The position numbers were made by a program, and so were the translations under genes. Under the pieces are notes generated by a model. The model had not been told where the DNA came from. It saw only the letters and a program-made list of their open reading frames with translations, and searched no databases. This document shows, one piece after another, positions 15,722-35,559 of a stretch of 64,000 nt of DNA. Position 1 is the first letter of the stretch. Every line of letters begins with the position of its first letter. This stretch comes from a virus: positions 1-64,000 of the IMG/VR virus record IMGVR_UViG_3300027861_000017, one strand, 5' to 3'.

Positions 15722-15940
15722 TCAGTGTATATCATCATGTCTACAACCGTTAAATTTAAAATTCTTATCTAAATAAATAAGAGACCTAAATTCTCCAGTA
15801 TAAAAATGGTCTATTAATTCTCCATTAATTACTGAATAAAGATTAGAGTTAGAGCCTATTACAAACCCAGTAAATGCAAAACCACTACAATCGTTAGCTT
15901 GATATATTAAGATATCTTCTTTGAATATTTGAATTATCAC
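15722..15940 (-). CDS. Unrecognised small protein, 72 aa
   Basis: A GTG at 15940 is preferred because GAGGG lies about 9 bases upstream and the GTG overlaps the amidotransferase stop (TAGTG); an ATG at 15949 is in frame. Beta-rich sequence with a CSGFAFTGFVIGSNSN stretch. No family recognised. Confidence 0.5.
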   Translation of the reverse strand: MIIQIFKEDILIYQANDCSGFAFTGFVIGSNSNLYSVINGELIDHFYTGEFRSLIYLDKNFKFNGCRHDDIH

Positions 15941-17013
15941 TACACACATTCCCTCTTTAGCATATAAGGTCTTTCGGGCTTATCAGTCTTCACTAAAACG
16001 TCTTTGTTCACAAACTTACCTATCACATCCCAAAACTCTCCTTCATCCATTCCAAAGTAATCCAGATAATAATCGAGATATTCAACAGGGAATTGCCCAT
16101 CAAGCAAATTAACCAATCCGACACCTTCTTCACGACTTAACCTCCCTCTCCTGACTTCTATACTCACATCTGATGTACATCTACCAAATCCAAACTTGAC
16201 AAACATTAAATAAGCATGCAGATCCTGCATTACATCATCTAACTGGCTATAATTAGTGAATGTTCCTATACTGCCACTAACCATCATCTGCATATTACAT
16301 TTGGTCTTAGCTATTATAGCATGATGCTCTGGGTCCCAATCTTGAAACTTAGACCAGTGAGTAGCATATAGTTTGTCTAGATCTTTCTGTTTGGGTAAAG
16401 TCCAGAGATCCCCGTATCTCTTAGGGTCAAATCCGGAGTAGTAATATTTGATAAGATATTCTCTGTCTATCTTCTCATTAGCATCCTGAGCACCACCATA
16501 CTCTTTCTCCCCTTCTTCTCCGTACATTATAAAGGGTATATTATATTCGACAGCCTTATTGAGTATGGTAGTTGATATCCCAGTAACGAATGGTAGCTTA
16601 GGCCTCCCCTGTTCTATGAAACCCATCTTTGCTATTTCTCTATATTTATCAACCGGTATATCTATAGTCTGGTGATCAAATCCGGAGTCTATGAAATTCT
16701 TCAGGTTTTGGTATCCAAGCCAAGTTTGAATCTGAGGTAACACTGTTATGCACAGGGGGTTCATGTCTAGTTCGTGTTTCATCATCCACGCAACGTAGGA
16801 ACCATCTTTACCACCTGAGCATGGCACTATTGCATCGTACTCTCCCTTACCCCTAAATCTATCACACAGTGCTTCTAGTTTATCCCATCGCTCATTCCAG
16901 TCTATTGTGGTCTGTTTTTCGTCGTGCCATGTACACGCACTACAAACACCATCATCATTAAATGTTAAGCGTGGTCTAGTGTCTGGTGTGACACATCTTG
17001 TACAATACTTCAT
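15940..17013 (-). CDS. N-acetyl sugar amidotransferase (WbpG/PseA/PtmG-like PP-loop enzyme)
   Basis: The N-terminus has the zinc motif YCTRCVTPDTRP plus GVCSAC (Cys 4, 7, 24, 27). Residues about 62-75 are the PP-loop (AIVPCSGGKDGSY) that adenylates the substrate. Length 357 fits WbpG/PseA proteins, which convert an acetamido to an acetamidino group on nonulosonic acids or aminosugars. These normally take ammonia from HisH-like partners, which are not seen here. In this cluster it would act late, making an amidino-legionaminic-type sugar. The substrate is inferred from neighbours. Confidence 0.85.
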   Translation of the reverse strand: MKYCTRCVTPDTRPRLTFNDDGVCSACTWHDEKQTTIDWNERWDKLEALCDRFRGKGEYDAIVPCSGGKDGSYVAWMMKHELDMNPLCITVLPQIQTWLGYQNLKNFIDSGFDHQTIDIPVDKYREIAKMGFIEQGRPKLPFVTGISTTILNKAVEYNIPFIMYGEEGEKEYGGAQDANEKIDREYLIKYYYSGFDPKRYGDLWTLPKQKDLDKLYATHWSKFQDWDPEHHAIIAKTKCNMQMMVSGSIGTFTNYSQLDDVMQDLHAYLMFVKFGFGRCTSDVSIEVRRGRLSREEGVGLVNLLDGQFPVEYLDYYLDYFGMDEGEFWDVIGKFVNKDVLVKTDKPERPYMLKRECV

Positions 17014-17213: not shown

Positions 17214-17527
17214 GTTATCCTTGGGCTTCCTAATGTACAATGGCATATACCTGATGCGTGTGGGTTGTTTTTGGGATTATTGGAGCAGGTAGCACAAGCG
17301 TCAGTTTCCCAACAATCACTGTGGCTTAAACCATCTAACCATTCCAATCCCTCATAAAACACATCGTCATATCTTGGCTCAGTTATCGGCTTGACTCTTT
17401 TTCTACGCTTATTAACTGAGTCTTTTATCTTTTTTCTTATATCGGGAATACCTGCACCAATATCAGATCCTTCTTCTAGTTCTAATATATAATCTATAGC
17501 ATCATCTTTGATATTAAGTTTATACAT
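17210..17527 (-). CDS. Unrecognised protein with Cys-rich end, 105 aa
   Basis: The N-terminal half is charged and helical; a KKIKDSVNKRRKRVK segment is strongly basic. The C-terminal third has four to five Cys (DCWETDACATCSNNP, CHCTLG), likely a metal site. Overlaps the stop of the synthase gene by one base. No known family. Confidence 0.6.
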   Translation of the reverse strand: MYKLNIKDDAIDYILELEEGSDIGAGIPDIRKKIKDSVNKRRKRVKPITEPRYDDVFYEGLEWLDGLSHSDCWETDACATCSNNPKNNPHASGICHCTLGSPRIT

Positions 17528-18324
17528 TAATTCGACTCCATAACAGACAATATCTTATCCTTTACTTTTAGCTCTGCTTCTGTGGGTTCCTTTGCTGTGT
17601 TCTTTAGAGCCTTTTCCACATTCCTTATCATTGTGACCATTATCTTAAATCGATCTGGTTCTATGCTGGCTTTATGATCTGGTCCATCAGCATATCTATC
17701 CATTGTGATATGCTTCTCTATTATCCTGGCACCCCTAGCTACTGCTGCTATTGGTATTTCTATGCCGGAGGTGTGGTCGGAGAGGCCATCAAAATCACAA
17801 TAGTCATCTAAGAAGTTCGGTAATCTAACATTATCGTATGGCGTGGGATATTCAGTATTACACTCTAATAAAAAAAATGTTCCGGCTTGAAAATATCCAT
17901 AACCCATTACACGGTATTCAAAATCCAAAATATCAGATTGTAGTTGCATGCCAGTAGACGCTATTATTATTTCTGGATTCTTATCAAATATAGCCTTTGA
18001 ATATTCCTCATTATTTAATTTCCCACTAGGTATCTTCCAAGTAGTCATCCCCAACTCAGCCAGAAAATCAATGCTCCAGAAATCAAAAGGAGTGCAAAAC
18101 CAATCTAGCCCCAATCCTTCAGCATAAGACTTTAAGTTTATAAGGTCGTTATCGGATAATCTTAGATGCTCTATATCTGGAAAATGCCCCTCTCCCCATG
18201 CTTGAAACTTAACAGCATCAGCACCGGCACAATATGATTCATAAATAAGCTCTACAGCTTCTTCGTAAAGGCCGTTATGATTAACTCCGCACTCAGATAT
18301 TATATAGACTTTCGAGTTATCCAA
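17527..18324 (-). CDS. Nonulosonic acid synthase (NeuB/LegI/PseI family) lacking SAF domain
   Basis: A TIM-barrel synthase condensing PEP with a 2-acetamido mannose-type sugar. Visible signatures are IISECGVNHNG, GADAVKFQAW, WFCTPFDFWSIDFL, TWKIPSGKL, ECNTEYPTPYDNVRLPN, GLSDHTSGIEIP and IEKHITMD. A TTG start at 18324 follows GGAGGGG. At 265 residues it ends after the barrel; usual NeuB-type enzymes are about 335-350 and carry a C-terminal SAF (antifreeze-like) domain that supplies an active-site Arg to the partner subunit. Either a SAF-less variant or a protein needing another subunit. Confidence 0.88.
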   Translation of the reverse strand: MDNSKVYIISECGVNHNGLYEEAVELIYESYCAGADAVKFQAWGEGHFPDIEHLRLSDNDLINLKSYAEGLGLDWFCTPFDFWSIDFLAELGMTTWKIPSGKLNNEEYSKAIFDKNPEIIIASTGMQLQSDILDFEYRVMGYGYFQAGTFFLLECNTEYPTPYDNVRLPNFLDDYCDFDGLSDHTSGIEIPIAAVARGARIIEKHITMDRYADGPDHKASIEPDRFKIMVTMIRNVEKALKNTAKEPTEAELKVKDKILSVMESN

Positions 18325-19142
18325 AAGTTCCCCTCCTTCTTGGTATACATCTTATCAGCCTCTGGAACTAAAAGCTCCTTAATCTTTTCCCCAGGTCTCA
18401 AACCTACATACTTTATTTTACAATCTGGATGTATCTCTTTAGCCACATCCACTATCTTGCGCTCTTCCATTACAGGAACAAATATCTCTCCACCCTTCAT
18501 AATGTTGATGACTTCATAGATTCTCTCTGCCACTTCGTGAGGATGTATGAAATATCTAACCATATCTTTGTGTGTGACTGGGAATGTGTTAGTTCCATCA
18601 GCTTTGAGCTTGTTGAAATACTCAACCACTGATCCCCTAGATCCCCATATATTACCAAACCTTATTGATGCAAACTTTGTTTGGGAGGAGCCGCAATATT
18701 TATGTGCGTTAATAAAAAGCTCATCAGCAACTAGTTTAGAAGCTCCATAGAGGCTAGAAGGATCTACAGCCTTGTCTGTACTTATATGCAGGACTCTCTT
18801 AACATGCCTTTCTATGGCAGCATGCATTATATTCTCGGAACCAGTTATATTGGTGTGAATACCTTCTAGGGGTTCTCCCTCTAGTGTATCTATCTGCTTC
18901 AATGCAGCAGCATGAATAACTATATCAACATTCCTAAACGCCATATGCAGTCTATCACGACTTCGTATGTCACCTAAAAAATATCTTATCTTATCAATAC
19001 CCTTATAATCGTTCTTCATAAGGTATTGATTATATTCATTATTATTAAATACTATTATTCGGTCTACTTCTGGAGCCGATAAAAGTCTGTCTACTACATA
19101 TCTACCAACAGTACCGTTCCCACCCGTTACTAATACTTTCAT
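18300..19142 (-). CDS. UDP-N-acetylglucosamine 4,6-dehydratase (PseB/LegB/FlaA1-like SDR)
   Basis: The N-terminal VLVTGGNGTVGRYVV is the NAD(P)-binding loop; HAAALKQID and ISTDKAVDPSSLYGASK hold the catalytic Asp-Lys and YxxxK residues; SIRFGNIWGSRGSV and YVGLRPGEKIKELL are CapD/PseB-type signatures. At 280 residues it is a short soluble dehydratase. It would make the 4-keto-6-deoxy sugar that starts nonulosonic acid synthesis. It overlaps the synthase gene by 25 bases, so the two are translated together. Inverting or retaining type cannot be decided by eye. Confidence 0.9.
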   Translation of the reverse strand: MKVLVTGGNGTVGRYVVDRLLSAPEVDRIIVFNNNEYNQYLMKNDYKGIDKIRYFLGDIRSRDRLHMAFRNVDIVIHAAALKQIDTLEGEPLEGIHTNITGSENIMHAAIERHVKRVLHISTDKAVDPSSLYGASKLVADELFINAHKYCGSSQTKFASIRFGNIWGSRGSVVEYFNKLKADGTNTFPVTHKDMVRYFIHPHEVAERIYEVINIMKGGEIFVPVMEERKIVDVAKEIHPDCKIKYVGLRPGEKIKELLVPEADKMYTKKEGNFWITRKSI

Positions 19143-19153
19143 GAATCATATCC

Positions 19154-19729
19154 CTATTTTTTTATCAAAATCAAAGAAACTGGATGTAGGCCATTCTTTT
19201 TATTATTATAATTAAATTCTTTTTGCGTATAAGAATCTTTCATATTGTAAATAGCAGGAGTCCATGTTTGTGTTTCACAAAAATAAATACCTTTCTCATG
19301 GAAATATTTTAAATACTTCCAATCATCATATCCATTCTTTCTACCATTTAATTGATACGGCTCTGGTAATTTGTGTGTTTCCCTTAAATAATATACAGCT
19401 TCTGATACAATTAACATATCATCTATAATACCGAGATCTATTATATCTTCATCTCTATTATATTGAGAATATTTATCTACTAATTCTTCTTCATCGCCAC
19501 AATCACAAGATGGTTGATTCCAATTCAAATCAACCCCTCTAATTTGATAATCACCCCATTCATTCAATAAATATAATAGTAAATTTTTTTGCGAATCAGA
19601 CAATGTATTTATGAATTTTTTTATTTTAACGTCTGTGACGAATTGCATTTTCCTGAAACAGTTATCATCGCAAAAACCACCATAATCATAAAAATTTACA
19701 CCACAATAACTACATTTATTACTAACCAT
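19154..19729 (-). CDS. Zinc-knuckle protein of unknown function, 191 aa
   Basis: Opens with a Cys4 knuckle (KCSYCGVNFYDYGGFCDDNC) followed by a helical segment (FINTLSDSQKNLLLYLLNEW). A second Cys pair (SCDCGD) lies near residue 75. A decayed gene directly upstream (19784-20092) encodes the same N-terminal architecture, so this is the intact copy of a duplicated family. A GGGGGGG site precedes the ATG. Confidence 0.65.
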   Translation of the reverse strand: MVSNKCSYCGVNFYDYGGFCDDNCFRKMQFVTDVKIKKFINTLSDSQKNLLLYLLNEWGDYQIRGVDLNWNQPSCDCGDEEELVDKYSQYNRDEDIIDLGIIDDMLIVSEAVYYLRETHKLPEPYQLNGRKNGYDDWKYLKYFHEKGIYFCETQTWTPAIYNMKDSYTQKEFNYNNKKNGLHPVSLILIKK

Positions 19730-19783
19730 GATACCCCCCCGTTATAAGCACTTTAATAAAGCCAACTCAACATTTAAATCCAA

Positions 19784-20092
19784 TTAATTATAATCAATCT
19801 TACCACTCCATTTAGCATAATCATTCCAATATTTTTGAAAAAAAATGATCTGTTCCTTACTCAATGATCCAAAGAAATTTTCAATATTGGTAGATATTTG
19901 TTTTTTCAAAAATTAATGGCATTGATCTGAGCATATATTATAATATTGATATTCTTTTTGATTTAATGATGCTTCTACATCATTGTATTCTTGACGATCA
20001 TCAAACATTTCTATATCTGCGCTATAATATTTATACCCCTTACTACATTGAATACGTTTTTTATTCTCAATAAATATTTTATCTTACTTCAT
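19784..20092 (-). pseudogene. Decayed paralogue of the zinc-knuckle gene at 19154
   Basis: After GGGGGAG, an ATG at 20092 starts a 102-codon frame interrupted by TAA at codon 3 and at about codon 60. Reading through, it encodes a Cys-containing N-terminus, then NICSDQCH, then FLKKQISTNIENFFGSLSKEQ, aligning with CDDNCFRKM and KKFINTLSDSQK of the intact neighbour. Both stops are one base from a Lys codon. It fills the otherwise empty 400 bases. Two nonsense mutations are more likely than recoding, because TAA ends many genes here. Confidence 0.6.
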
Positions 20093-20114
20093 AGCTCCCC
20101 CTTATTTTATTCCT

Positions 20115-20142
20115 GACACAAATATGTGTATCTTTTTGTGTC
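20115..20142 (-). terminator. Perfect 8-bp hairpin at the end of the aminotransferase gene
   Basis: On the RNA strand GACACAAA (20142-20135) pairs with TTTGTGTC (20122-20115), with a 12-base loop, starting in the stop codon of the aminotransferase gene. Only a weak AT tail follows, so it may be a pause, processing or partial termination signal. Confidence 0.4.
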
Positions 20143-21199
20143 AAAGAATCCCCTTTAATATCTTACATACCTTCATTATATCCTTCTCTTCATTTAATGT
20201 AGAAGAAGGGAGGCATGCCCCGTTATTGTATAGCTCTATTCCAACCTTAAAATTAGGTTCGTTGAACTCATCTTCGCAATACAGATCCATCAATGCCAAT
20301 GGTGAGAACACCTTCCTAAAAGGAATCCCCTGAGACATCAACACTATATGTAAATTTGATTCGTGAGTGGCTGCTGTAAACCAGTAGTTAGGAGTGTATT
20401 CGGGAGAAGTTTCCTGAAAATCAAGCTTCGAGTCAAGTTCGTTCCTGTATATCTCATGTATTTTGCGTTTCTTGTTTATAAATTCATGCATGCGCTCTAA
20501 TTGTGATAAGCCTAGAGCTGCTTGCATACCGTTCATTTTATAGTTGTATCCACAGCTCTCAAAATCACCAAACTCACTACGCCCTACGTTTACTATTTCC
20601 CTAGCCCATTTCATGTCTCTATATTTACTAGTAATCAAACCACCGCTACCGGTAGTCATTATCTTATTACCATTGAAACTATAGCATACATAATCTGCCA
20701 TCTCAGGGAGCATGTTGCCCCACATATCTTTAGACCCCAAGCTTTCGCATGAATCTGAAATCCAAATCAATTCGTGCTCAGTAACAAATTTATGCAAATC
20801 CCAACATGGCATGCCGTAAAGATCAACAGACATTATAGCCTTTGTCTTATCAGTTAGTGCATTTTTTGCACAAGTTGGATCTATACACCACAACAAAGGG
20901 TCTACATCAACAAAAACCGGTGTAGCACCTACATATTTAATAGCGTTTGCAGTGGCTATAAACGTCGTGGCTGGGAGTATTACCTCATCACCTCTTCCTA
21001 TACCGGCTGCTAGTAAAGCTACGTGTAGTGCTGATGTACCTGAGTTGGTGGCTATTGTTTCATCTACACCTAAATACTTGGCGCACTCAACTTCGAAATT
21101 AGAAACCATATCGCTTCTAGAAGATATATCCCCTTTACACATTAACCTTTCTACATTCTTAATATCTATAGGATCTATATTGGAATCATCTAGAAACAT
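20141..21199 (-). CDS. PLP-dependent sugar aminotransferase (DegT/DnrJ/EryC1; LegC/PseC-like)
   Basis: Family signatures in order: TNSGTSALHVALLAAGIGRGD, VILPATTFIATANAI, PVFVDVDP, WISDSCESLGS, and SFNGNKIMTTGSGGLI with the PLP-binding Lys. Length 352 is normal. It would transfer an amino group from glutamate to C4 of the 4-keto-6-deoxy-HexNAc nucleotide made by the dehydratase at 18300. The gene is closely followed by a hairpin and a decayed gene, then the dehydratase. ATG at 21199 follows GGGGGGAG. Confidence 0.92.
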   Translation of the reverse strand: MFLDDSNIDPIDIKNVERLMCKGDISSRSDMVSNFEVECAKYLGVDETIATNSGTSALHVALLAAGIGRGDEVILPATTFIATANAIKYVGATPVFVDVDPLLWCIDPTCAKNALTDKTKAIMSVDLYGMPCWDLHKFVTEHELIWISDSCESLGSKDMWGNMLPEMADYVCYSFNGNKIMTTGSGGLITSKYRDMKWAREIVNVGRSEFGDFESCGYNYKMNGMQAALGLSQLERMHEFINKKRKIHEIYRNELDSKLDFQETSPEYTPNYWFTAATHESNLHIVLMSQGIPFRKVFSPLALMDLYCEDEFNEPNFKVGIELYNNGACLPSSTLNEEKDIMKVCKILKGIL

Positions 21200-21209
21200 C
21201 ACTCCCCCC

Positions 21210-22265
21210 TCAAAATAGATCGTGAAACCCCTTCTTCATATTAATGTCAGGTAATTTATTAAGAATTGTAGATAGTATCTTCCAAGCCACATTACCACCA
21301 AGATATGGAGTATTGTATGGATTATTAATCTCATCTTGAAAATCTTCACTATATAACTCTTCCACGGATTCTCTTATACTGTCTGGTGTGGTATCTGCTA
21401 TTATTATACTATCTGCTAATTCTCTGCCTAATTGCCTATCCCCTAGCAATATAGTTGGTACTCCTAAAGCTGGAGCTTCTATAACACTTGAGCTGGAATT
21501 ACCTATTATGAAATCTGATTGTTTTAACATATTGAGATAGGCTTCTCTAGGATAGCTACTGCTGGCCTCTTTGTTTTTGTTTTTATGGGAGCCTTTATCT
21601 AATCCTGAGTTAATAACCTTTACGTATAGTTTGAGTTCGAAAGTCAAAAAACTGTATAAATCCAGATGGTTGTAATCTCCCAATGTTTCTGGGTGCTGTA
21701 TTAAAACACAACTCTTATTGTTCTCGTAGCCAACCCTTCTAGTTAAACCATCGCAACCTAAAGCACCTACATTAAATACTGTATCTGGATGTTCACCTAA
21801 TTGTATAACACGGTCTCTATATGGTTCAGCAGCTACAAAATGCAACTGAGACATCTTTGTTATCGAGTGCCTGAATGCATCATCGTAAGCCCCTGCTGTA
21901 ACTTCGCCACCATGTATATGGATGATAGGAATGTTAAATATGTGAGCAGCACTACATATGGCAAAGACTTCAAAACGATCACCAAGGGCAATAAGACAAT
22001 GAGGCTTAGTCCTACTAAAGACTTCTGCGACACCGATTTGAGCGAGTCCCATACTCTTTGCAATAGCTTCTGGAGTGTCACTTGATAATAGTATTTCAAT
22101 TGTCTCATGTGGACATTCTATTTCCTTTACAGTGTAGCCATGTTCGTAGCATAGATGTGAGCCTGTCACTATTAGGTTTAAGCTCTCTTTTGGAATCAAC
22201 TCCAAAAGTGGTTTCAATAATCCGTAATCAGCTCTGGATGATGTAGCGACTGCTATTCTTACCAT
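21210..22265 (-). CDS. Hydrolysing UDP-sugar 2-epimerase (NeuC/LegG-like)
   Basis: Signatures include RIAVATSSRADYGLLKPLL at the start (the SRADYG of NeuC/LegG), IVTGSHLCYEHG, ALGDRFEVFAICSAAHIFNIPIIHIHGGEVTAGAYDD, and IGNSSSSVIEAPALGVP near the end. Length 351. NeuC/LegG enzymes release UDP while inverting C2, producing the mannose-configured substrate of the synthase. This points to a neuraminic or legionaminic rather than pseudaminic product, since the PseG hydrolase is a different fold. Confidence 0.92.
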   Translation of the reverse strand: MVRIAVATSSRADYGLLKPLLELIPKESLNLIVTGSHLCYEHGYTVKEIECPHETIEILLSSDTPEAIAKSMGLAQIGVAEVFSRTKPHCLIALGDRFEVFAICSAAHIFNIPIIHIHGGEVTAGAYDDAFRHSITKMSQLHFVAAEPYRDRVIQLGEHPDTVFNVGALGCDGLTRRVGYENNKSCVLIQHPETLGDYNHLDLYSFLTFELKLYVKVINSGLDKGSHKNKNKEASSSYPREAYLNMLKQSDFIIGNSSSSVIEAPALGVPTILLGDRQLGRELADSIIIADTTPDSIRESVEELYSEDFQDEINNPYNTPYLGGNVAWKILSTILNKLPDINMKKGFHDLF

Positions 22266-22933
22266 GCAGTATAGCCCCCATCTACTGGAAGCTCAATGCC
22301 TGTTACGTAATCATTCTCAGCTAAAAATAAAGCTGCGTGAGCTACTTCTTTTGCCTCGGCCATCCGTAACAATGGTACCCTGCATATATACTGATCATAA
22401 AAATTAATATCACGCTCTTCGTGATTATCATTGACCCCACCAGCTATAATAGTATTTGCTCTTACGCCATGTTGTCCAAAGCGTGTAGCTAAGGCTTTTG
22501 TCATGGCGTTGATGGCACCTTTAACCATGCAATATTCTACGGAGGGTTCGCTTATCTCATCACCTGGTGTGTATAGGTATGGGTATGTTCCCCTTACACC
22601 ATATATAGAGGACATGTTAATTATACTGCCGCCGCCATTTTCTCCCATAGCCATAGCAGCGTATGTAGAAATAATATTATAAGCGACTAAATGATCATTC
22701 CATACAGGAGGATATATAGAATTAATCCATATATCATCTTTGTTCAATTTGTCAAAGAGCTGTTCGAATTCTTCCGTGTTGAAGAACTCCATGTTAAAAT
22801 CTATAACGATATCAGCATCTTCGGATCTATCTAGGTTGGTGACTTGATACTTTTTCTCTTTAAAAGCATCTACTATAGCCCTACCTATAAGACCACTTCC
22901 TCCAGTTACGTATACATGTCTCCCCTTAGACAT
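22259..22933 (-). CDS. Short-chain dehydrogenase/reductase, PtmA-like
   Basis: ATG at 22933 follows AAAGGGGG. Residues 5-20 hold the Rossmann loop VYVTGGSGLIGRAI; the catalytic elements are INMSSIYG and YCMVKGA (Ser, Tyr, Lys), and DGGYTAW ends the chain as in classical SDRs. In Campylobacter and other bacteria, SDRs annotated PtmA accompany legionaminic acid genes. Its reaction here cannot be read from sequence. It overlaps the epimerase gene by 7 bases. Confidence 0.85.
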   Translation of the reverse strand: MSKGRHVYVTGGSGLIGRAIVDAFKEKKYQVTNLDRSEDADIVIDFNMEFFNTEEFEQLFDKLNKDDIWINSIYPPVWNDHLVAYNIISTYAAMAMGENGGGSIINMSSIYGVRGTYPYLYTPGDEISEPSVEYCMVKGAINAMTKALATRFGQHGVRANTIIAGGVNDNHEERDINFYDQYICRVPLLRMAEAKEVAHAALFLAENDYVTGIELPVDGGYTAW

Positions 22934-23184
22934 TTTCATCCCCCTTTTGTAATAAAAAATTGGGCTGGCTTTTGTAACCAAGCCGGAGTTACCAGCTTCC
23001 GGCTATGAAAAATATTCTTTAATATTAGGTGGAATATAACTAATTTTAACAGTTATTTTATAATATAACCAAATTAAATTAAAATGAAATTAAGCATCAT
23101 TTAAATTAATGTAGTTATTTCAAACATTTATATTTTACAATTTATTTTTTTAAAAAATAAAATGAACGTTTAAAAGTGATATTT
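22934..23184 (-). promoter_or_regulatory. AT-rich leader with hairpin before the sugar operon
   Basis: About 250 bases without a gene, very AT-rich. A hairpin AGCCGGA-loop-TCCGGCT (about 23007-22981) lies 50 bases before the SDR start. Upstream, TTGGTT, 17 bases, TTAAAA could be a weak promoter, but the base composition makes chance matches likely. The place fits a control region for the genes 22933 to 17527. No other gene is seen here. Confidence 0.35.
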
Positions 23185-24264
23185 TTATCCTTTGATGACA
23201 ATTAGGGGTTTAAAATGATCTATAATGTCAACTAAAATTCCATCTTGAGCTGCTAATACATAATTGATATCTTTGTAGGCATCTTTAGCTTCTGCTATAA
23301 ATTTTATATCGGTTGGTGCTCTTATGCCATCCATTTCATTGACAAATTTATCATGATCTAATTCTCTTTTAGCTTGACCTCTACTCATCTTCCTCCCTGC
23401 CCCATGTGAAGCTGAACTTAAAAACTCCTCATTGCCTAATCCTCTAGTTATATAAACTCCGTCATGCATATTTGCTGGGATTATACCTATCTGATCTTTA
23501 TCTGCTGGTGTAGCCCCCTTCCTATGTAGAACGCCATCTTTAGTTATTACGGCATGATTATGGTTTTCATTGATGATATTGATATTCTTTTTATTGAATG
23601 GCAACATCATAGCTTTATACATGCTTTCCATAATCCTCATTCTGTTATCTAAAGCAAACTGTAAAGCCCAATTCATATCAGCCATAAACGCACTACCAAT
23701 ATCTGAGTCTATTTTGACTGGACCTCCTGTTAAGCGCATATATAAATCACCAATATTATATCCAGCCTTCCTTGACCCACTATGTATTGTTATCCCGATA
23801 AAGCCATCTTCATTAACTCCCACCTCGCAAAAGTGGTTATTTTGCCCCATAGTGCCTAGTTGTGTAGAAGCTTTATAACGTACTGCATCATGTAGAGCTG
23901 CAAATTTAGATTTATTGGGAAATTTTTTATCATATTTTATTGGTTTATCGAGCGAATTAAATCCAACTGGAATGAAACTATATAACCTTTCTTCTATTTC
24001 CCCCAATGATAATTTCAAATCATCTACATAAGTGTCTGTATTGACATGACATAAACCGCATCCCTGGTCAAATCCAACTGCTCCAGGCCACACATACCCA
24101 TCCAGTAAAGCTACTCCACCTATAGGTAAATCATAACCAGCATGAACATCTGGCATTATAGCTAGTTTCTTCAAGAACGGAAGTTCTAGGGCAGCTTCTA
24201 TCTGCTCCCAAGCTGTAGCCTCTATATCTTCCTTTGGTAATGTCAGTTTTAATCTATCATCCAT
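23185..24264 (-). CDS. rtcB: RtcB-type RNA ligase
   Basis: Signatures: IMPDVHAGYDLPIGGVALL (37-53), AVGFDQGCGLCHVNT with the manganese-binding Asp and Cys, IHSGSRKAGYNIGD, NENHNHAV, and SSASHGAGRKMSRGQAKREL carrying the guanylylated His region. Length 359 is shorter than the about 400-480 of cellular RtcB but all motifs are present. RtcB joins 2',3'-cyclic phosphate to 5'-hydroxyl RNA ends with GTP and can repair cut tRNAs, a plausible defence against anticodon nucleases. Confidence 0.93.
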   Translation of the reverse strand: MDDRLKLTLPKEDIEATAWEQIEAALELPFLKKLAIMPDVHAGYDLPIGGVALLDGYVWPGAVGFDQGCGLCHVNTDTYVDDLKLSLGEIEERLYSFIPVGFNSLDKPIKYDKKFPNKSKFAALHDAVRYKASTQLGTMGQNNHFCEVGVNEDGFIGITIHSGSRKAGYNIGDLYMRLTGGPVKIDSDIGSAFMADMNWALQFALDNRMRIMESMYKAMMLPFNKKNINIINENHNHAVITKDGVLHRKGATPADKDQIGIIPANMHDGVYITRGLGNEEFLSSASHGAGRKMSRGQAKRELDHDKFVNEMDGIRAPTDIKFIAEAKDAYKDINYVLAAQDGILVDIIDHFKPLIVIKG

Positions 24265-24275
24265 TTTGATTCCCT

Positions 24276-24641
24276 CTATTTTATAATACCAAGATCAAGC
24301 TCTCGCACAAACCACCCATATTTTTCTTCAATCTTCTCTTCTATATGCTCTCTTATTGTGGCAGGATCTATTTTGGTTTCTGAATATGATGTATAGAATA
24401 CGCCATCTCTACTATAATTATCGCCAACAGCCACTGATATACATTCTTTACCAATAACATTATAACTACTATAGGAACCGGAATCCTTCTCAAGCTTAGT
24501 CCAGCTATCATTATCAAGAATCACATATTTATCATTCTGGATCAATATGTTAAATTCTTTGATCTCGAATACATCTTTCTCCCACTCATATTCTCCAGGT
24601 TCCCTGTAGATCTTCACTTGGTGATAGAATACCATATCCAT
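24276..24641 (-). CDS. Unrecognised protein, 121 aa
   Basis: A soluble, charged alpha-beta protein rich in Tyr, Glu and Lys; no Cys knuckles and no membrane segment. Its start lies one base after the preceding stop (TAGATG) and follows GGAG. No family recognised. Confidence 0.65.
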   Translation of the reverse strand: MDMVFYHQVKIYREPGEYEWEKDVFEIKEFNILIQNDKYVILDNDSWTKLEKDSGSYSSYNVIGKECISVAVGDNYSRDGVFYTSYSETKIDPATIREHIEEKIEEKYGWFVRELDLGIIK

Positions 24642-24839
24642 CTAGATCTCCTCTATATCATATATTTTAGGTTTACGTTTAACTATCTTTATTAATTTGT
24701 ACACCTCTATATCTTCTTCACCTTCATTCATCCATTCGTCTAGTGTTACATCTAGATCTTCCCTGCCTTCAATTGAAAGTTCGCTATCTGGTCGTATTAT
24801 AATGAATCTCTCTATTTTCTCACTCTTCTTTGCTGCCAT
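24642..24839 (-). CDS. Unrecognised acidic protein, 65 aa
   Basis: Lys-rich N-terminus followed by an acidic middle (EGEEDIEVYK) and a basic KIVKRKPK segment. Strong GGGGGGAG site. Tightly packed between the acyltransferase and the gene at 24276. No function suggested. Confidence 0.6.
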   Translation of the reverse strand: MAAKKSEKIERFIIIRPDSELSIEGREDLDVTLDEWMNEGEEDIEVYKLIKIVKRKPKIYDIEEI

Positions 24840-24840
24840 A

Positions 24841-25278
24841 TTATTTCTCCCCCCAAAACCATCGCCTCTTACTTAACATTTTCCTCAACGGATATATACA
24901 GGACCAAGTTACATCCTCCCATAATGTAAACCCTGCTGGCACATCTCCTAGCACACGGGCACCAGCTCCTATAACCGCTCCCTCCCCTATCGTGACATTC
25001 GGAAAAATGATCGAACCCGCTCCCACACAGGCACCAGCCTTGATATGCACAGGACCACGCTTGTTATCAATAGTGTTAACACTATAAATATAACAACCTC
25101 CACCGATTTGAACATCTCTTTCAATTGTAACACCTTCTTGTGCTTGAATATATGTGCCATATCCTATATCTGTGTTCTCCTCCAATATGAAATTATCCAC
25201 TCCCTTAACAACCCATCCGTATTTACATGGTCTACCGTCTTCTAGTTCTGGGGCTTGCCAGTTTTCAAATCTTATCAT
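24841..25278 (-). CDS. Hexapeptide-repeat acyltransferase (left-handed beta helix), LegH/NeuD-like
   Basis: ATG at 25278 overlaps the upstream stop (TAATG) and follows AAAGGAAA. From about residue 40 there are hexapeptide turns: NTDIGYGTYIQ, VQIGGGCYI, VHIKAGACVGAGSIIFPNVTIGEGAVIGAGARVLGDVPAG. This is the trimeric acyltransferase fold using acetyl-CoA. It is the only N-acyltransferase candidate in the pathway and could acetylate the 4-amino sugar, as LegH/PseH-type steps require. The C-terminus is basic and aromatic (KRRWFWGEK). Substrate is inferred from context. Confidence 0.8.
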   Translation of the reverse strand: MIRFENWQAPELEDGRPCKYGWVVKGVDNFILEENTDIGYGTYIQAQEGVTIERDVQIGGGCYIYSVNTIDNKRGPVHIKAGACVGAGSIIFPNVTIGEGAVIGAGARVLGDVPAGFTLWEDVTWSCIYPLRKMLSKRRWFWGEK

Positions 25279-25475
25279 TATAGTTTCCTTTGTATATCTA
25301 TACCTTCTAAAGATTCTATAAGGGCAAATAGTGGTCCAAGCATTATAGATATCAAGAGACCCAAAAACAATAGACTTAAACATATAATTTTGCCCCTATA
25401 CCATCTTATTGAATATAATAATATAGTCAAAGATATTCCAGATATAGGCCATAATAATAAAAGCTCAGTTGACAT
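25278..25475 (-). CDS. Small two-pass membrane protein, 65 aa
   Basis: Two hydrophobic stretches (ELLLLWPISGISLTILLYS and IICLSLLFLGLLISIMLGP) flank a short basic loop (RWYRGK). Coupled to the acyltransferase by a TAATG overlap. Start follows GGGGG. Function unknown. Confidence 0.65.
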   Translation of the reverse strand: MSTELLLLWPISGISLTILLYSIRWYRGKIICLSLLFLGLLISIMLGPLFALIESLEGIDIQRKL

Positions 25476-25540
25476 TTATATACCCCCTTGGATAGTACAT
25501 CATCATCTTAGACTCATCCCAATGTTCTTCTGGATACTCC

Positions 25541-25882
25541 CTATTTGTTAAAGGGACAACTTTCTGGTCCAGCATTTACTCCTGGTTCTTCTCCATGTTT
25601 TGAAAGTAACTCTTCTATAACTCTCTCGTCAAAGAAGCCATCTTTAATCATAAACAATGAATTCTCAAAAAGTTCATTATATACTAAATAATCTGAGTCA
25701 TTAGCATAAAAATCTGGTTCAGCAGATGGACCTTTGAGACAACTTAAATATCTGTCTCTATCACTATCACACACTATTGTAATACCTATATCATATTCTA
25801 CTCCAACTAAATGCCCTATTATTTCCGTTCCCTTATAGTTTATAAATCTTATTGTTCTACCTTCAAACTTCTCGTAATCCAT
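25541..25882 (-). CDS. Paralogue of the gene at 13830, 113 aa
   Basis: Shares with the protein at 13830 a central GPSAEPDFYANDSDYLVYNE-type segment and the end M-x-KD-x-F-x-D-x-R-x-I-x-E. The C-terminal 15 residues are an extension lacking in the other copy. No known domain; the two copies lie on either side of the sugar genes. Confidence 0.65.
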   Translation of the reverse strand: MDYEKFEGRTIRFINYKGTEIIGHLVGVEYDIGITIVCDSDRDRYLSCLKGPSAEPDFYANDSDYLVYNELFENSLFMIKDGFFDERVIEELLSKHGEEPGVNAGPESCPFNK

Positions 25883-25883
25883 A

Positions 25884-26180
25884 TTATTTCTCCCTTTCTA
25901 TAACTTCTGCTAATGACAATAAGACTGTTTTGATCATATCGTTTATTGAATGATTTCCACCCTCTTTGGTTTTATTCATATATAGTTTAGTTACGTCATC
26001 GTGGTGTTTCATGTATTGGAGGGAGGTGTAGGGTATCTCTCCTATCTCCTCTGATCCGATTAATAACATTTGACTACGCATACCATTCTTAACAAGCCAT
26101 ATGCCATCAGAGGGGAAGCCGGTGAACTCAGTGCCTACTTCTTTGTATCTTTTACCTACTTTTCTATATAATTTATCCAT
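25884..26180 (-). CDS. Unrecognised protein, 98 aa
   Basis: ATG at 26180 follows GAGGGAGAT. The middle is beta-rich (WLVKNGMRSQMLLIG) and the end is a helix (NDMIKTVLLSLAEVIEREK) that loosely resembles the shared C-terminal helix of proteins at 29-34 kb. No family recognised. Confidence 0.6.
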   Translation of the reverse strand: MDKLYRKVGKRYKEVGTEFTGFPSDGIWLVKNGMRSQMLLIGSEEIGEIPYTSLQYMKHHDDVTKLYMNKTKEGGNHSINDMIKTVLLSLAEVIEREK

Positions 26181-26499
26181 TATCTCCCTCAATACAATCT
26201 TCCCTAAATATTATCCCTAACTTATCAGAAAGTCTTTTATACTCTTCTGATTCTTCATCGCCAGCCACGAAAAATGAATAATACTCCAAATCTTCATCAA
26301 ACCATTCAGATAAAAACTTATCTTTAGATATGCCAAACTCCACTTGCATAGCCATTTCTTCTGAAACTGGGTCAAACAACTCGTGCCAATATAGACCATC
26401 GTGCTTTGAAAAATCCCAATAAATCTTATAACCTAAGCTTTCAAACATTTCTATTAAGTCTGATTTGTCTAGGTTGGGGTTTAATATTTGTTCTGTCAT
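26173..26499 (-). CDS. Unrecognised acidic protein, 108 aa
   Basis: ATG at 26499 follows GGGAGAGA, which also encodes the last residues of the upstream protein. Rich in Asp, Glu and aromatic residues (WFDEDLEYYSFF). No motif recognised. Confidence 0.6.
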   Translation of the reverse strand: MTEQILNPNLDKSDLIEMFESLGYKIYWDFSKHDGLYWHELFDPVSEEMAMQVEFGISKDKFLSEWFDEDLEYYSFFVAGDEESEEYKRLSDKLGIIFREDCIEGDNG

Positions 26500-26500
26500 T

Positions 26501-26872
26501 TTATTCTCTCTCCCACTCGTGTGTGTGATTAGGCTTATCTTTACCCTCAAGAGCTTTCTTAACTTTCTTCTTGAATCTAACCGCCTTTCTTAATATTAAA
26601 ACAACACAAAGCCATATTGAAGCTACAATAACTAGGGGCCATATTAACATTGATATTAGAACAATAAACGCAAAAAGAACTGGGTAAAGAATTAATTCTG
26701 CCCCGCCCAGATCACCTATAAAATCTAATTTACGTATAAAATTCGGTATAAAGAGGCTTAACTTTTCATCGTTTATTGATTGTAAAGATAAATAAATAGC
26801 GTTAACGCTAAAAAATATCAACAATATTGCTCCACACACTATGCCAGTAACTTGCATTCCTATCTCGTACAT
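26501..26872 (-). CDS. Membrane protein with PNHTHEWE tail, 123 aa
   Basis: Three hydrophobic segments (residues about 8-28, 60-80 and 82-105) precede a basic tail, RFKKKVKKALEGK, that ends PNHTHEWERE. The neighbouring protein at 26872 has the same end on a different membrane part. His and Glu/Trp in the tail might bind metal. Start at 26872 overlaps the upstream stop (TAATG). Confidence 0.65.
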   Translation of the reverse strand: MYEIGMQVTGIVCGAILLIFFSVNAIYLSLQSINDEKLSLFIPNFIRKLDFIGDLGGAELILYPVLFAFIVLISMLIWPLVIVASIWLCVVLILRKAVRFKKKVKKALEGKDKPNHTHEWERE

Positions 26873-27231
26873 TATTTCTCCTCCCATTCGTGTGTGTGAT
26901 TAGGATCTTCTTTACCACTAAGAGTCTTGTTAACCTTCTTACGTAGTCTTACAAAGCCACGTAGAGAGTACAAGCTTAGATATCCAATGCCACACAATAT
27001 AGCTGGCAACCATAAAAAGCCTACAACGTAACCAATGGGAAATAAAAGCACACAAACTAGCGGCATAGGCATATCGTGGAATCCACTAGGCAAGCTGGGC
27101 CACCATTTAAAATCACTATCTTCAACCCAAGCCTTAGCCCATATAACTGTATTAGTAATACCAAGAAAAATACCTGTTACTACAAATATATCCATTACAA
27201 AAAAAGCAATACTTAAATATAAATCATTCAT
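26872..27231 (-). CDS. Membrane protein with PNHTHEWE tail, 119 aa
   Basis: Hydrophobic segments at residues about 5-28 and 57-92, then a basic helix (RLRKKVNKTLSGK) and the end PNHTHEWEEK. The tail DNA shares a 16-base exact match with the neighbouring gene at 26501, while the membrane parts differ. AAGGAGGGG precedes the ATG. Function unknown. Confidence 0.65.
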   Translation of the reverse strand: MNDLYLSIAFFVMDIFVVTGIFLGITNTVIWAKAWVEDSDFKWWPSLPSGFHDMPMPLVCVLLFPIGYVVGFLWLPAILCGIGYLSLYSLRGFVRLRKKVNKTLSGKEDPNHTHEWEEK

Positions 27232-27273
27232 CTCTTTACCCCTCCTTATCTAATATACAACTTTCAAACATAT

Positions 27274-27987
27274 TTATTCACCCTTATCTAATATGTATCG
27301 TTTGTGTAACATCTCTGCTATTTGAAAGTCTACCTCGCTATCTATATCGAAAGCTTGCCAGTCTTCCATGTATAAAGGATAGTTCTTACTATTTAGCACA
27401 TTGTTTATACCTTTGTCAAGCCATTTCTTATTGTATACGTATATACTTGCATTCATTTCATGTATTGCAGGAGCGTCCTGTCTCCTGAGATAATCACCTT
27501 CACACGCAGTCTTAGATTGACCAAATCTGTCAGTTGTTACCATGTTGAAGTAGGGGTTTTTCCTGGCAGGGGATACAGAGAATACCACATCGAGTGTGGA
27601 TCTATTGTTCATCATCTCGTGCATACCAACCGCCTCATGGATGTTGATCATAGTTCTTAGTGGTGCTGATACATCTAGGTCTATTACGGTGTCGTATTCC
27701 CCCCCATACTCGGCTTCAGCAGCAGACACAGCCTCACGTATAGCTTCTATCTTAGGAGTGTCGTCTTGGGCTAGTTTAGGGTCTCTATCGTGGTGATATA
27801 CTCCGTAGGCGTTGCAGAAATGTTTCATACCATCGTAATCAGTTGATACCACTATATCAGCATCCCCATAGATGATAGCTTGAAGGAATGTCCAGTTTAT
27901 TAAAGGTTGGCCATTCATGTCTTTCATGTTTTTGTCAGGGAGTCCTTTAGACCCCTTACGTGCTAGTATTGTTATCAACTTATTCAC
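27274..27987 (-). CDS. CMP-nonulosonic acid synthetase (NeuA/LegF/PtmB-like)
   Basis: The N-terminal ITILARKGSKGLPDKNMKDM is the CTP-binding signature of NeuA-type cytidylyltransferases; DIVVSTDYDGMKHF, DTVIDLDVSAPLRTM, and the final DWQAFDIDSEVDFQIAEML also fit the family. Length 237. It would activate the nonulosonic acid with CTP. A GTG start at 27987 follows GGAGGAG. Being 9 kb upstream of the synthase, the pathway is dispersed among unrelated small genes. Confidence 0.9.
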   Translation of the reverse strand: MNKLITILARKGSKGLPDKNMKDMNGQPLINWTFLQAIIYGDADIVVSTDYDGMKHFCNAYGVYHHDRDPKLAQDDTPKIEAIREAVSAAEAEYGGEYDTVIDLDVSAPLRTMINIHEAVGMHEMMNNRSTLDVVFSVSPARKNPYFNMVTTDRFGQSKTACEGDYLRRQDAPAIHEMNASIYVYNKKWLDKGINNVLNSKNYPLYMEDWQAFDIDSEVDFQIAEMLHKRYILDKGE

Positions 27988-33201: not shown

Positions 33202-33984
33202 TTATTCCCCCACCTTCTCTACTATCTTTCTAAATAAAGGCTCTGCCTCAAAGATGTTATTCATCATACTAGGGTTGTCTATGTTTGTAAAGAAGTATTT
33301 TAATTGGTCTATGTATATTTGGTCTATCACTTTTATATGGGTGGTGATTCCGGCTACCCTCAATAATCTAAGCTCTTGTGAGGAGGCTAAATCTAGCTCT
33401 ACATGAGTTGAAGTAGAATCTTCATGGGTCAGTGTGTATTTGCCGTGTTTGTCGAAGGTGGAGCCATCTATGGATTGTATGGGGCCAAATAGGTATTGAG
33501 TGTAATCCAATTCGTGGGATAATTCAAAAAGGACGTGATCTAGTTCTCTTTGGGAGGGCCAATTGTTAGAATTGGTTTTACAGACAATTTCTCTGCGTGA
33601 TGTTTCTTTTCCTGTTAGATGGGATTTGAGGTGGGTTATTACGTGGTTAAATCTAAGACAATATCCTATGTAGGTGATAACGCCTTCATCTTTAACTAAT
33701 TTCAATAATATATCTAAGTTTTTATCACTGACATCAACCGGCTTCTCTATAAAAAGCCTCTTTATACCTCTTTCGATACAGTATATGGCTGCCTCGATGT
33801 GTTTGTCTGAGGGGTAGCATATAAATGCGGCATCGAAGTGGGATAAGTCCACATTACTGTTGCCTTTTATATCTAGCTCCTTGACATCGTATAAACGGTG
33901 GTCATAGTTCTTCTGGATTAAACTCCAGTGTTTATTACCTATGCTGCCAAGACCGAAAAACAATATTTGCAAACTGTCATCCAT
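33202..33984 (-). CDS. Gfo/Idh/MocA-type NAD(P)-dependent oxidoreductase
   Basis: The N-terminus ILFFGLGSIGNKHWSLI is a Rossmann loop of the GFO_IDH_MocA family; FICYPSDKHIEAAIYCIERGIKRLFIEKPVDVS contains the conserved EKP, and TYIGYCLRFNHVI the following N/F motif. At 260 residues the C-terminal domain is short. Gfo/Idh proteins (PtmF-type) accompany SDRs in bacterial legionaminic acid clusters, so it probably modifies the sugar or its precursor. The reaction is not determined. Confidence 0.85.
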   Translation of the reverse strand: MDDSLQILFFGLGSIGNKHWSLIQKNYDHRLYDVKELDIKGNSNVDLSHFDAAFICYPSDKHIEAAIYCIERGIKRLFIEKPVDVSDKNLDILLKLVKDEGVITYIGYCLRFNHVITHLKSHLTGKETSRREIVCKTNSNNWPSQRELDHVLFELSHELDYTQYLFGPIQSIDGSTFDKHGKYTLTHEDSTSTHVELDLASSQELRLLRVAGITTHIKVIDQIYIDQLKYFFTNIDNPSMMNNIFEAEPLFRKIVEKVGE

Positions 33985-34333: not shown

Positions 34334-34529
34334 CTTTTATAATCTCCCATCCTATATATGGTCCTACCGTGATTGGGGTTTCTGCTTCCATATCATTATC
34401 CCATTCGGCGAAATAGTCTAACTCAAAATCATTAAACGCTTCGTTAGCTATATCTACTAATGAATCATCTGGGTATTTGTAGCTTTCGTTTAAGATGTAT
34501 TGGATAGCTCTTCTGGTGTTATTATCCAT
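34326..34529 (-). CDS. Unrecognised acidic protein, 67 aa
   Basis: ATG at 34529 follows GGAGGTTGCTA, which encodes the last Gly-Gly-Cys of the upstream peptide. Acidic helix-rich protein. It is translationally linked to the Cys/Gly-rich peptide gene and could be part of the same unit; no motif recognised. Confidence 0.6.
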   Translation of the reverse strand: MDNNTRRAIQYILNESYKYPDDSLVDIANEAFNDFELDYFAEWDNDMEAETPITVGPYIGWEIIKDE

Positions 34530-34726
34530 TAGCAACCTCCACTACCACAAGATCTTGCAGGTGATCCATGACCACATCCACCACTACCACAACCCACTGT
34601 AGATGATTCAGTGTCTCTCTTTATGACATACTTCTCTTTCTTAGTCTTTTTAGCGTTTCCCTCTAGAGCATCCAACCTCTCCGTAATCCTTTGCAATGCC
34701 TCTGCTATTTCTTCTAATACTCCCAT
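34529..34726 (-). CDS. RiPP-like peptide: helical leader and CGSGGC-type core, 65 aa
   Basis: Residues 1-25 form a charged helix (VLEEIAEALQRITERLDALEG), followed by a Lys-rich linker, and residues 45-65 contain five Cys, ten Gly or so, Ser and His: CGSGGCGHGSP then SCGSGGC at the very end. The gene starts two bases after a radical SAM gene. Helical leader plus Cys/Gly-rich tail next to a radical SAM enzyme is the layout of modified peptides; alternatively the tail binds metal. No transporter or protease gene is adjacent. Confidence 0.7.
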   Translation of the reverse strand: MGVLEEIAEALQRITERLDALEGNAKKTKKEKYVIKRDTESSTVGCGSGGCGHGSPARSCGSGGC

Positions 34727-34728
34727 CT

Positions 34729-35559
34729 TTACCCCTCCGTATGTAATATTATATTTTTACCCCAATCGGCAGACAATGTTCCATCAGGATGAAATACACA
34801 TTCATAAACTAAATCTAATCCTTCTGAAGGTTCTGGTATAGATGCCTTCCATGTAACTGGCATGCCATCTATTATCATCGTAGATGACCTACAAACTGGG
34901 CATCTATTCTCAGAAATAACCTTATAGTCCTTGAACCAAAGCTCCTCATCTTGAGGCTCCAATGAGCAATCATCGTAATGCTGATGCCTAAAACATACAC
35001 TTGATATGCTAGTATATTTACAAGACTCAATATGGTCTTCTATATCAGATTTATCTTGGAATTGTCCAACTAAAACACAATTAGCATTAACCTTTATCCC
35101 ATTTTTATTGAAAAAGGTTGTAATATCCATTAAATCTTCTGTATTTAATATAGGAGACATAATATCAAAACATTTTGCATCTTCATAGCTAATGAATGAA
35201 TGTTTACTGATATTGATATAATCTATAACAATAAGATCTGGCCTCATTAAGCCATCTATGAAATTCTGTAAATGATATCCATTTGTAGTTAAAACAATTT
35301 TTCGGAACTTGTCTCTATATTTCAGTAGCATCTTTAAAACATATGATAGATATGTCGAAGCAGTAGGCTCTCCACCAGTTAAGCTTATCTGATAAAATTG
35401 GTCCGGCAATGATGATAATACCTCCTCCAATCTAGACATGTATGCTTCAAATGGCAATTCATAGGATCTCTCCCAGAAACAAAATCCACAATTGGCGTTG
35501 CAGGGTCCAGGGAGGATAATACTGAAGTTGGGATCTTCTATTGTTAGAATTTCGTCCAC
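34729..35559 (-). CDS. Radical SAM enzyme with extra Cys motifs
   Basis: A GTG at 35559 is preferred, with GAGGAGG four bases upstream. Residues about 15-35 hold GPCNANCGFCFWER, the CxxxCxxC iron-sulfur site for S-adenosylmethionine, followed by ISLTGGEPTAS, KIVLTTNGYHLQ and VNANCVLVGQ, all standard for the fold. The C-terminal part has NRCPVCRSS and VYECVFHPDGTLSADWG, suggesting a second cluster or SPASM-like element. Length 276. It is directly followed by the Cys/Gly-rich peptide, its likely but unproven substrate. Confidence 0.85.
   Translation of the reverse strand: MDEILTIEDPNFSIILPGPCNANCGFCFWERSYELPFEAYMSRLEEVLSSLPDQFYQISLTGGEPTASTYLSYVLKMLLKYRDKFRKIVLTTNGYHLQNFIDGLMRPDLIVIDYINISKHSFISYEDAKCFDIMSPILNTEDLMDITTFFNKNGIKVNANCVLVGQFQDKSDIEDHIESCKYTSISSVCFRHQHYDDCSLEPQDEELWFKDYKVISENRCPVCRSSTMIIDGMPVTWKASIPEPSEGLDLVYECVFHPDGTLSADWGKNIILHTEG

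What the first reader, a model, noticed from the sequence alone, without database searches (positions are those of the whole stretch)
34529..35559. Radical SAM enzyme coupled to a CGSGGC peptide: possible phage RiPP
The radical SAM gene (site CNANCGFC, plus C-terminal Cys) ends two bases before a 65-codon gene with a helical leader and a five-Cys, Gly-rich end (CGSGGCGHGSP...SCGSGGC). Leader plus Cys-rich core beside a radical SAM enzyme is the usual layout of thioether-type peptides. No transporter or peptidase is adjacent, so a product staying in the cell or virion is possible.
Basis: partly seen in the sequence, partly recalled or inferred. Interest (0 to 1): 0.78.

Follow-up and report, generated by a model that had tools for sequence, protein, structure and literature searches.

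The report
Phage radical-SAM enzyme with cysteine tail
This phage carries a radical-SAM enzyme paired with a small glycine/cysteine-rich peptide, and across about 50 distantly related phage and metagenome loci the same enzyme family almost always carries such a cysteine tail, either fused to its own end or on the protein next door, which suggests an undescribed system in which the enzyme chemically modifies its own attached or adjacent tail.

Summary
The gene pair is real: a radical SAM (rSAM) gene (34729-35559, minus) ends 2 bases before a 65-codon gene with a helical N-terminus and a Gly/Cys-rich end. The peptide has four Cys, not five. Its ribosome site lies in the last codons of the rSAM gene.

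Relatives were collected by enzyme sequence alone (viral contigs, phage records, MAGs). Of 61 rSAM relatives tabulated, 53 have a [GS]-C-G or C-x-[YF] tail: 34 fused to the enzyme's C-terminus, 16 on an upstream helical protein, 3 on a downstream peptide. Cys lies in the last five residues in 96%, against 9% of other ORFs there. Tails carry 1-7 Cys and sometimes repeats. Tail-bearing enzymes keep a C-terminal CxxC/CxC pair; the tail-less outgroup clade (7 members) lacks both. The fold is MoaA/SuiB-like. No curated family claims these enzymes.

Best explanation: the rSAM enzyme modifies Cys-containing tails in cis or trans, a RiPP-like system resembling fused and split borosins. The chemistry (thioether most likely) and the role in infection are untested. 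Rivals: the tail as a thiol relay or as a cluster ligand of an enzyme with another substrate.

The parts
34729..35559 (-). radical SAM enzyme, 276 aa, GTG start, MoaA-like barrel plus C-terminal twitch-like domain
   Evidence: Pfam PF04055 E 4.5e-11; AF2 model pLDDT 86.8, pTM 0.86; whole-length fold match to MoaA 1tv7, TMq 0.65
35479..35502 (-). CNANCGFC, SAM [4Fe-4S] cluster motif (residues 20-27)
   Evidence: all three Cys invariant in alignments A2, A5 and A7
34891..34902 (-). CPVC pair (residues 220-223), candidate auxiliary cluster or metal site
   Evidence: first Cys invariant, second over 90% in A7; a CxC/CxxC pair follows residue 170 in 52 of 53 tail-bearing members and in 0 of 7 members of the tail-less clade
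34732..34738 (-). Shine-Dalgarno-like GGAGGGG for the peptide gene, inside the last rSAM codons
   Evidence: sequence
34529..34726 (-). 65-aa Cys-tail peptide gene (stop included)
   Evidence: sequence; placed like the peptides of L028 and L097, 2 nt after the rSAM stop
34595..34726 (-). N-terminal part (residues 1-44): heptad-like helix MGVLEEIAEALQRITERLDALEG and a Lys-rich linker; putative leader or docking part
   Evidence: sequence; weak PHROG match of 4-52 to phrog_1103 (E 4.6e-4, unknown function)
34532..34594 (-). Cys/Gly-rich tail GCGSGGCGHGSPARSCGSGGC, putative core
   Evidence: sequence; same [GS]-C-G motif as the fused and trans tails of relatives

Best explanation
A phage-borne RiPP-like modification system. 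The rSAM enzyme uses a 5'-deoxyadenosyl radical to modify a flexible Gly/Ser-rich tail that presents one or more Cys at or near a C-terminus. In most relatives the tail is the enzyme's own C-terminus (cis); in this window it sits on a 65-aa protein made immediately after the enzyme, whose helical N-terminus would bring the tail to the active site (trans). The chemistry is most likely Cys-based crosslinking (thioether to carbon; in the jumbo-phage clade with its C-x-Tyr/Phe tails possibly involving the ring), with the CPVC/CxC site holding an auxiliary cluster that engages substrate Cys. With no protease or exporter nearby, the modified tail probably stays on its protein and acts inside the infected cell. 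Shown by computation: gene pairing, recurrence, motif, fusion/split, fold. Inferred: that the tail is the substrate, the bond type, and the role.
For: Tails in 53 of 61 tabulated relatives found by enzyme sequence only. Three layouts of one tail type, fused, upstream, downstream, with several switches on the tree (5 changes among 4 states). Cys number varies 1-7 with repeats (GCGSDDSNSGFS in L181), as in a substrate rather than in a fixed ligand set. Partner proteins are duplicated in tandem in two loci (L048/L157, L064/L165), and all 17 megaphage partners end in Cys while their leader diverges. 64 of 87 non-terminal Cys outside the jumbo clade are followed by Gly. Tail and auxiliary Cys pair go together. 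Among the top fold matches is SuiB with its peptide SuiA, then MoaA, SkfB, EpeE. Fused and split precursors of one enzyme type have a precedent in borosins (PMC8429565); a substrate Cys ligating an auxiliary cluster has one in CteB (PMC6231123).
Against: No modification has been observed. No RRE domain or RiPP protease/exporter. Enzyme profile and fold are as close to small-molecule enzymes (MoaA, viperin) as to peptide enzymes. Several tails have a single Cys at the very C-terminus (L012, L160, L165, L167, L180), an unusual core. L060 has the CxC pair but no tail was found.
Confidence: 0.58

Rival explanations
1. Thiol relay arm: the enzyme acts on another substrate (nucleotide, sugar, RNA) and the Cys tail is a swinging arm that donates electrons or a hydrogen atom, like the C-terminal CxxxxC arm of ribonucleotide reductase (recalled, not tested).
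For: CGSGGC resembles the E. coli NrdA tail CESGAC (from memory). The enzyme is nearest MoaA and viperin by profile and fold. A sugar-gene cluster lies in the same phage and an RNA 2'-phosphotransferase gene lies close by in several Erwinia-group phages. Single terminal Cys in some members.
Against: A relay needs a fixed one or two Cys, but the number runs from 1 to 7 with repeats. Tandem partner duplications and the long-standing separate-protein clade are odd for an arm. Neighbouring genes are not conserved across the family, so no shared metabolic substrate is suggested.
Confidence: 0.2
2. Structural or metal ligand: tail Cys complete an auxiliary Fe-S or metal site made by the CPVC pair, so the tail is part of the enzyme and not a substrate.
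For: The close group has only two conserved Cys in the C-terminal domain where MoaA has three; the position 13 residues after the second Cys is W237 in the window (sequence; MoaA spacing from memory). Tail and Cys pair co-occur, and the degenerate L029 lacks both.
Against: Variable Cys number and spacing, disordered tail in the model, linkers of about 20 to over 100 residues, and a tail that can move to a different protein.
Confidence: 0.14
3. The tail is a handle that binds metal, membrane or virion, and the adjacent rSAM enzyme has an unrelated job.
For: No functional test links the two; Cys/Gly tails are low in complexity.
Against: The same tail type tracks this rSAM family across very divergent phages and three layouts, including fusion.
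Confidence: 0.08

Closest known systems
Borosins (fused OphMA type; split type IV SonM/SonA)
   Same: One modifying-enzyme family found both fused to its C-terminal core and split into enzyme plus precursor (PMC8429565)
   Different: Borosin enzymes are alpha-N-methyltransferases; here it is a radical SAM enzyme with Cys/Gly tails, in phages; no modification shown
Sactipeptide and ranthipeptide maturases (SkfB, CteB, AlbA, PapB)
   Same: Radical SAM core with a C-terminal domain carrying a Cys pair, beside a Cys-bearing peptide; profile matches to AlbA and PapB in a minority of members
   Different: No RRE domain, no full SPASM Cys set, mostly fused tails, no exporter or protease; below all curated cut-offs
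SuiB (streptide maturase)
   Same: Top fold match of the L016 model (E 8e-11)
   Different: SuiB has RRE and SPASM domains and makes a Lys-Trp C-C bond; the sequences are only about 16% identical
MoaA (GTP 3',8-cyclase)
   Same: Best fold match of the window enzyme over its whole length (TMq 0.65)
   Different: 43 bits against a cut-off of 284; third auxiliary Cys position is W237; MoaA has no Cys/Gly tail protein
Prokaryotic viperin (pVip)
   Same: Radical SAM barrel (36-44 bits)
   Different: 36 bits against a cut-off of 180; extra C-terminal Cys-pair domain; Cys tail

Membership tests
Radical SAM superfamily | CxxxCxxC cluster motif in a partial TIM barrel | tested here: met
   CNANCGFC, PF04055 above its cut-off, AF2 model and fold matches
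SPASM/twitch radical SAM subgroup | C-terminal auxiliary-cluster domain with its Cys ligands | tested here: inconclusive
   A C-terminal beta domain aligns with MoaA over the whole length, but only two conserved Cys (CPVC) in the window's group; cluster content cannot be tested here
RiPP pathway | ribosomal precursor with leader and core encoded by or beside its modifying enzyme | tested here: met
   anatomy and linkage recur; this is layout only, not proof of modification
RiPP pathway | post-translational modification of the core by the enzyme | not testable with these tools
   needs co-expression and mass spectrometry
Sactipeptides and ranthipeptides | RRE domain on the radical SAM enzyme | tested here: not met
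   the 276-aa window enzyme is barrel plus C-terminal domain only: the barrel motif starts at residue 20, leaving no room for an N-terminal RRE of about 90 residues as in SkfB
Sactipeptides and ranthipeptides | Cys-to-carbon thioether | not testable with these tools
   chemistry unknown
MoaA | TIGR02666 curated cut-off | tested here: not met
   43.3 bits against 284
Viperin | NF038283 curated cut-off | tested here: not met
   36.1 bits against 180
Borosins | alpha-N-methyltransferase domain | tested here: not met
   the enzyme is radical SAM; only the fused/split layout is alike

The most novel reading that the evidence does not exclude
A widespread, undescribed class of self-modifying radical SAM proteins in phages: a radical counterpart of the borosins in which the enzyme installs crosslinks or other changes on its own Cys tail, or on a split-off tail protein, and the modified tail, kept on its protein, is the active agent during infection.
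Probability: 0.38. Interest if true: 0.87.

Novelty: new variant of a known kind. Interest (0 to 1): 0.77.

Why it matters
If true, phages from tens of kilobases to over 700 kb share a small self-contained radical peptide-modification module that needs no exporter or protease. The enzymes are short (about 250-300 aa), lack an RRE, and come naturally fused to their putative substrate, so they would be compact model systems for radical peptide chemistry and possible engineering tools. It would also raise a new question about what a modified Cys tail does during infection. Because cultured phages (Erwinia and Dickeya phages of the Alexandravirus group) carry the fused form, the idea can be tested directly.

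Tried and rejected
Single-protein scans with the window enzyme or peptide found nothing in viral contigs; only alignment-based scans reached the family. The first 23-sequence alignment was too divergent to scan with. tblastn of the window peptide against phages: no match; of two megaphage partner proteins: no match. Considered and rejected: QueE, NrdG, MoaA and viperin membership (all far below curated cut-offs); a Cys tail arising from the downstream gene's ribosome site (GGAGGT in the window encodes Gly-Gly but explains neither the Cys nor the fused tails); an ascertainment artefact (loci were fetched by enzyme sequence, not by tails, and unrelated rSAM loci brought in by the same scan lack such tails). 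Weak Pfam matches of partner leaders were taken as chance. Paper searches for fused radical SAM precursors or Cys-tailed phage radical SAM proteins found none, in an open-access library only. The segments matching Gastranaerophilales genomes (L100-L153) cover only the barrel and were not counted as family members.

Full report
What is there. The window is the first 64,000 bases of a 91,135-base virus record of a tailed phage. On the minus strand a radical SAM (rSAM) gene (34729-35559; GTG start after GAGGAGG) is followed after two bases by a 65-codon gene (34529-34726) whose ribosome site, GGAGGGG, lies in the last rSAM codons; the peptide stop overlaps the next start, TAATG. The enzyme has CNANCGFC and, near its end, CPVC. 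The peptide starts with a heptad-like helix, has a Lys-rich linker and ends GCGSGGCGHGSPARSCGSGGC. Pfam finds Radical_SAM (E 4.5e-11) and no exporter or peptidase among the immediate neighbours.

No known family. The window enzyme scores 43 bits against MoaA (cut-off 284) and 36 against viperin (cut-off 180). For 23 relatives the nearest models are again MoaA, viperin, HxsC and Tes; for the first member the full table shows all of them far below cut-off. In PHROGs only generic rSAM families match.

The recurrence. tblastn in phage records brought distant relatives in Erwinia, Dickeya and Yersinia jumbo phages, Dulem virus 40 and uncultured megaphages. Reading them showed that the jumbo-phage enzymes carry a Cys tail fused to their own C-terminus, for example SCNYSSPCSYSRGSSCSFGSGMC, and that megaphage LR756502 has a protein directly upstream ending CGDSKPSSDCGMGGGYSTSRC. 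Alignment-based scans of viral contigs and GTDB genomes brought many more. These were fetched by enzyme sequence alone, so the tails were not selected for. The closest relatives (32-42% identical) have fused tails such as YSSCGNTGSVRGYSSCG (L016), GSGGCGSGGCGK (L023) and GGGCGQVTFRGCGQ (L025). L028 and L097 have a tiny peptide 2 nt after the enzyme (MWTFENEEVLVIDNANMSGCGSSGCG in L097), as in the window. L018 and a megaphage clade have an upstream protein.

Numbers. Of 61 relatives tabulated, 34 are fused, 16 have an upstream partner, 3 a downstream peptide and 8 none (L029 and L083 were left out as broken). Among the 53 with tails, Cys lies in the last five residues in 96% (other ORFs of the same loci 9.4%), is the last residue in 58% (2.6%), and at least two Cys lie in the last 20 in 89% (8%). 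All 17 megaphage partner proteins end in Cys, including two tandem pairs; their helical N-terminal part is only weakly conserved. Outside the jumbo clade 64 of 87 non-terminal Cys are followed by Gly; in the jumbo clade the tail Cys are C-x-Tyr/Phe. Cys per tail run from 1 to 7, and L181 repeats GCGSDDSNSGFS. A few counts include Cys outside the tail proper.

Tree and co-occurrence. The four states need five changes on the tree (the least possible is three; shuffled mean 24). The window's split form is separate from that of L028 and L097, and L018's upstream partner lies within the fused group, so fusion and splitting happened more than once. Deep branches are weakly supported and the window's exact place is not resolved. 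52 of 53 tail-bearing enzymes have a C-terminal CxC or CxxC pair, against none of the seven in the tail-less Dulem-like clade. L060 (a long branch) has the pair but no tail was found. In L029 both pair and tail are missing and a stop interrupts the gene.

Structure. AF2 models are good for L016 (pLDDT 88.8; tail residues 282-297 disordered) and the window enzyme (86.8). The L016 model matches SuiB, including the complex with its peptide, then MoaA, SkfB and EpeE; the window model matches MoaA over its full length, then BlsE, SuiB and viperin. The fold alone does not separate peptide from small-molecule enzymes. In the window the residue 13 positions after the second CPVC Cys, where MoaA has its third auxiliary Cys (spacing recalled), is Trp237.

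Context. Genes around the relatives differ (DnaB-like and UvrD-like helicases, tRNA nucleotidyltransferase, HNH endonuclease, DNA methylase), so among the genes examined the Cys tail is the only recurring companion across clades. Leader homologues of one megaphage group were found only beside the enzyme (4 of 4).

Reading. Shown: coupling, recurrence, three layouts, a conserved Cys pair. Inferred: the tail is the substrate. Variable Cys number, repeats, partner duplications and the ability to live on the enzyme or on another protein fit a substrate better than a relay arm or fixed ligands. The layout parallels borosins, which occur fused and split (PMC8429565), and a substrate Cys ligating an auxiliary cluster is known from CteB (PMC6231123). 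The bond type, the fate of the tail and its use to the phage are unknown. I put the substrate reading at about 0.58, a relay at 0.20, a ligand role at 0.14 and an unrelated handle at 0.08.

Novelty. Radical SAM RiPP maturases are known; a family whose putative core is usually the enzyme's own tail, spread over phages of very different size, was not found in the open-access papers searched. Phage-borne RiPPs as such are not new (sublancin of prophage SPbeta, from memory). I therefore call it a new variant of a known kind.

Noticed in passing
window 17527-27987 (-): Sugar-gene cluster: NeuB (E 1e-52), UDP-GlcNAc 2-epimerase, DegT aminotransferase, polysaccharide dehydratase, hexapeptide transferase and cytidylyltransferase; looks like a phage-borne nonulosonic-acid pathway. 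An uncalled 357-aa protein at 15940-17013 may be an amidotransferase-like partner (no Pfam match).
   Followed up: partly
window 23185-24264 (-): RtcB RNA ligase homologue (Pfam E 1.5e-68) inside the sugar cluster.
   Followed up: no
window 33202-33984 (-): Gfo/Idh/MocA oxidoreductase-like gene (E 1.1e-7) in the same operon as the rSAM pair.
   Followed up: no
L036 1233-3984; L050 1192-3918: Three consecutive radical SAM genes in Dulem-like phages, the third a tail-less relative of the window enzyme.
   Followed up: no
L048, L049, L054 upstream of the partner gene (e.g. L049 1828-2613): An RlmN-like radical SAM protein (CKFCATG motif) directly upstream of the Cys-tail protein and its rSAM enzyme in three megaphage-clade loci; motif recognised by eye, not searched.
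   Followed up: no
L049 3835-3984, L054 3831-3962, L048 3808-3939, L164 3880-4074, L166 3867-4076: Small downstream protein with a conserved AVAxAT...GAACGQL segment beside many megaphage-clade rSAM genes; function unknown.
   Followed up: no
L008, L010, L011: RNA 2'-phosphotransferase (KptA-like) gene two places upstream of the rSAM gene in Erwinia/Dickeya/Yersinia jumbo phages, and a DksA-like zinc-finger gene downstream.
   Followed up: no
L029 2935-3792: rSAM relative interrupted by an in-frame TGA exactly where the CPxC pair should be, without a Cys tail; probably degenerate.
   Followed up: partly
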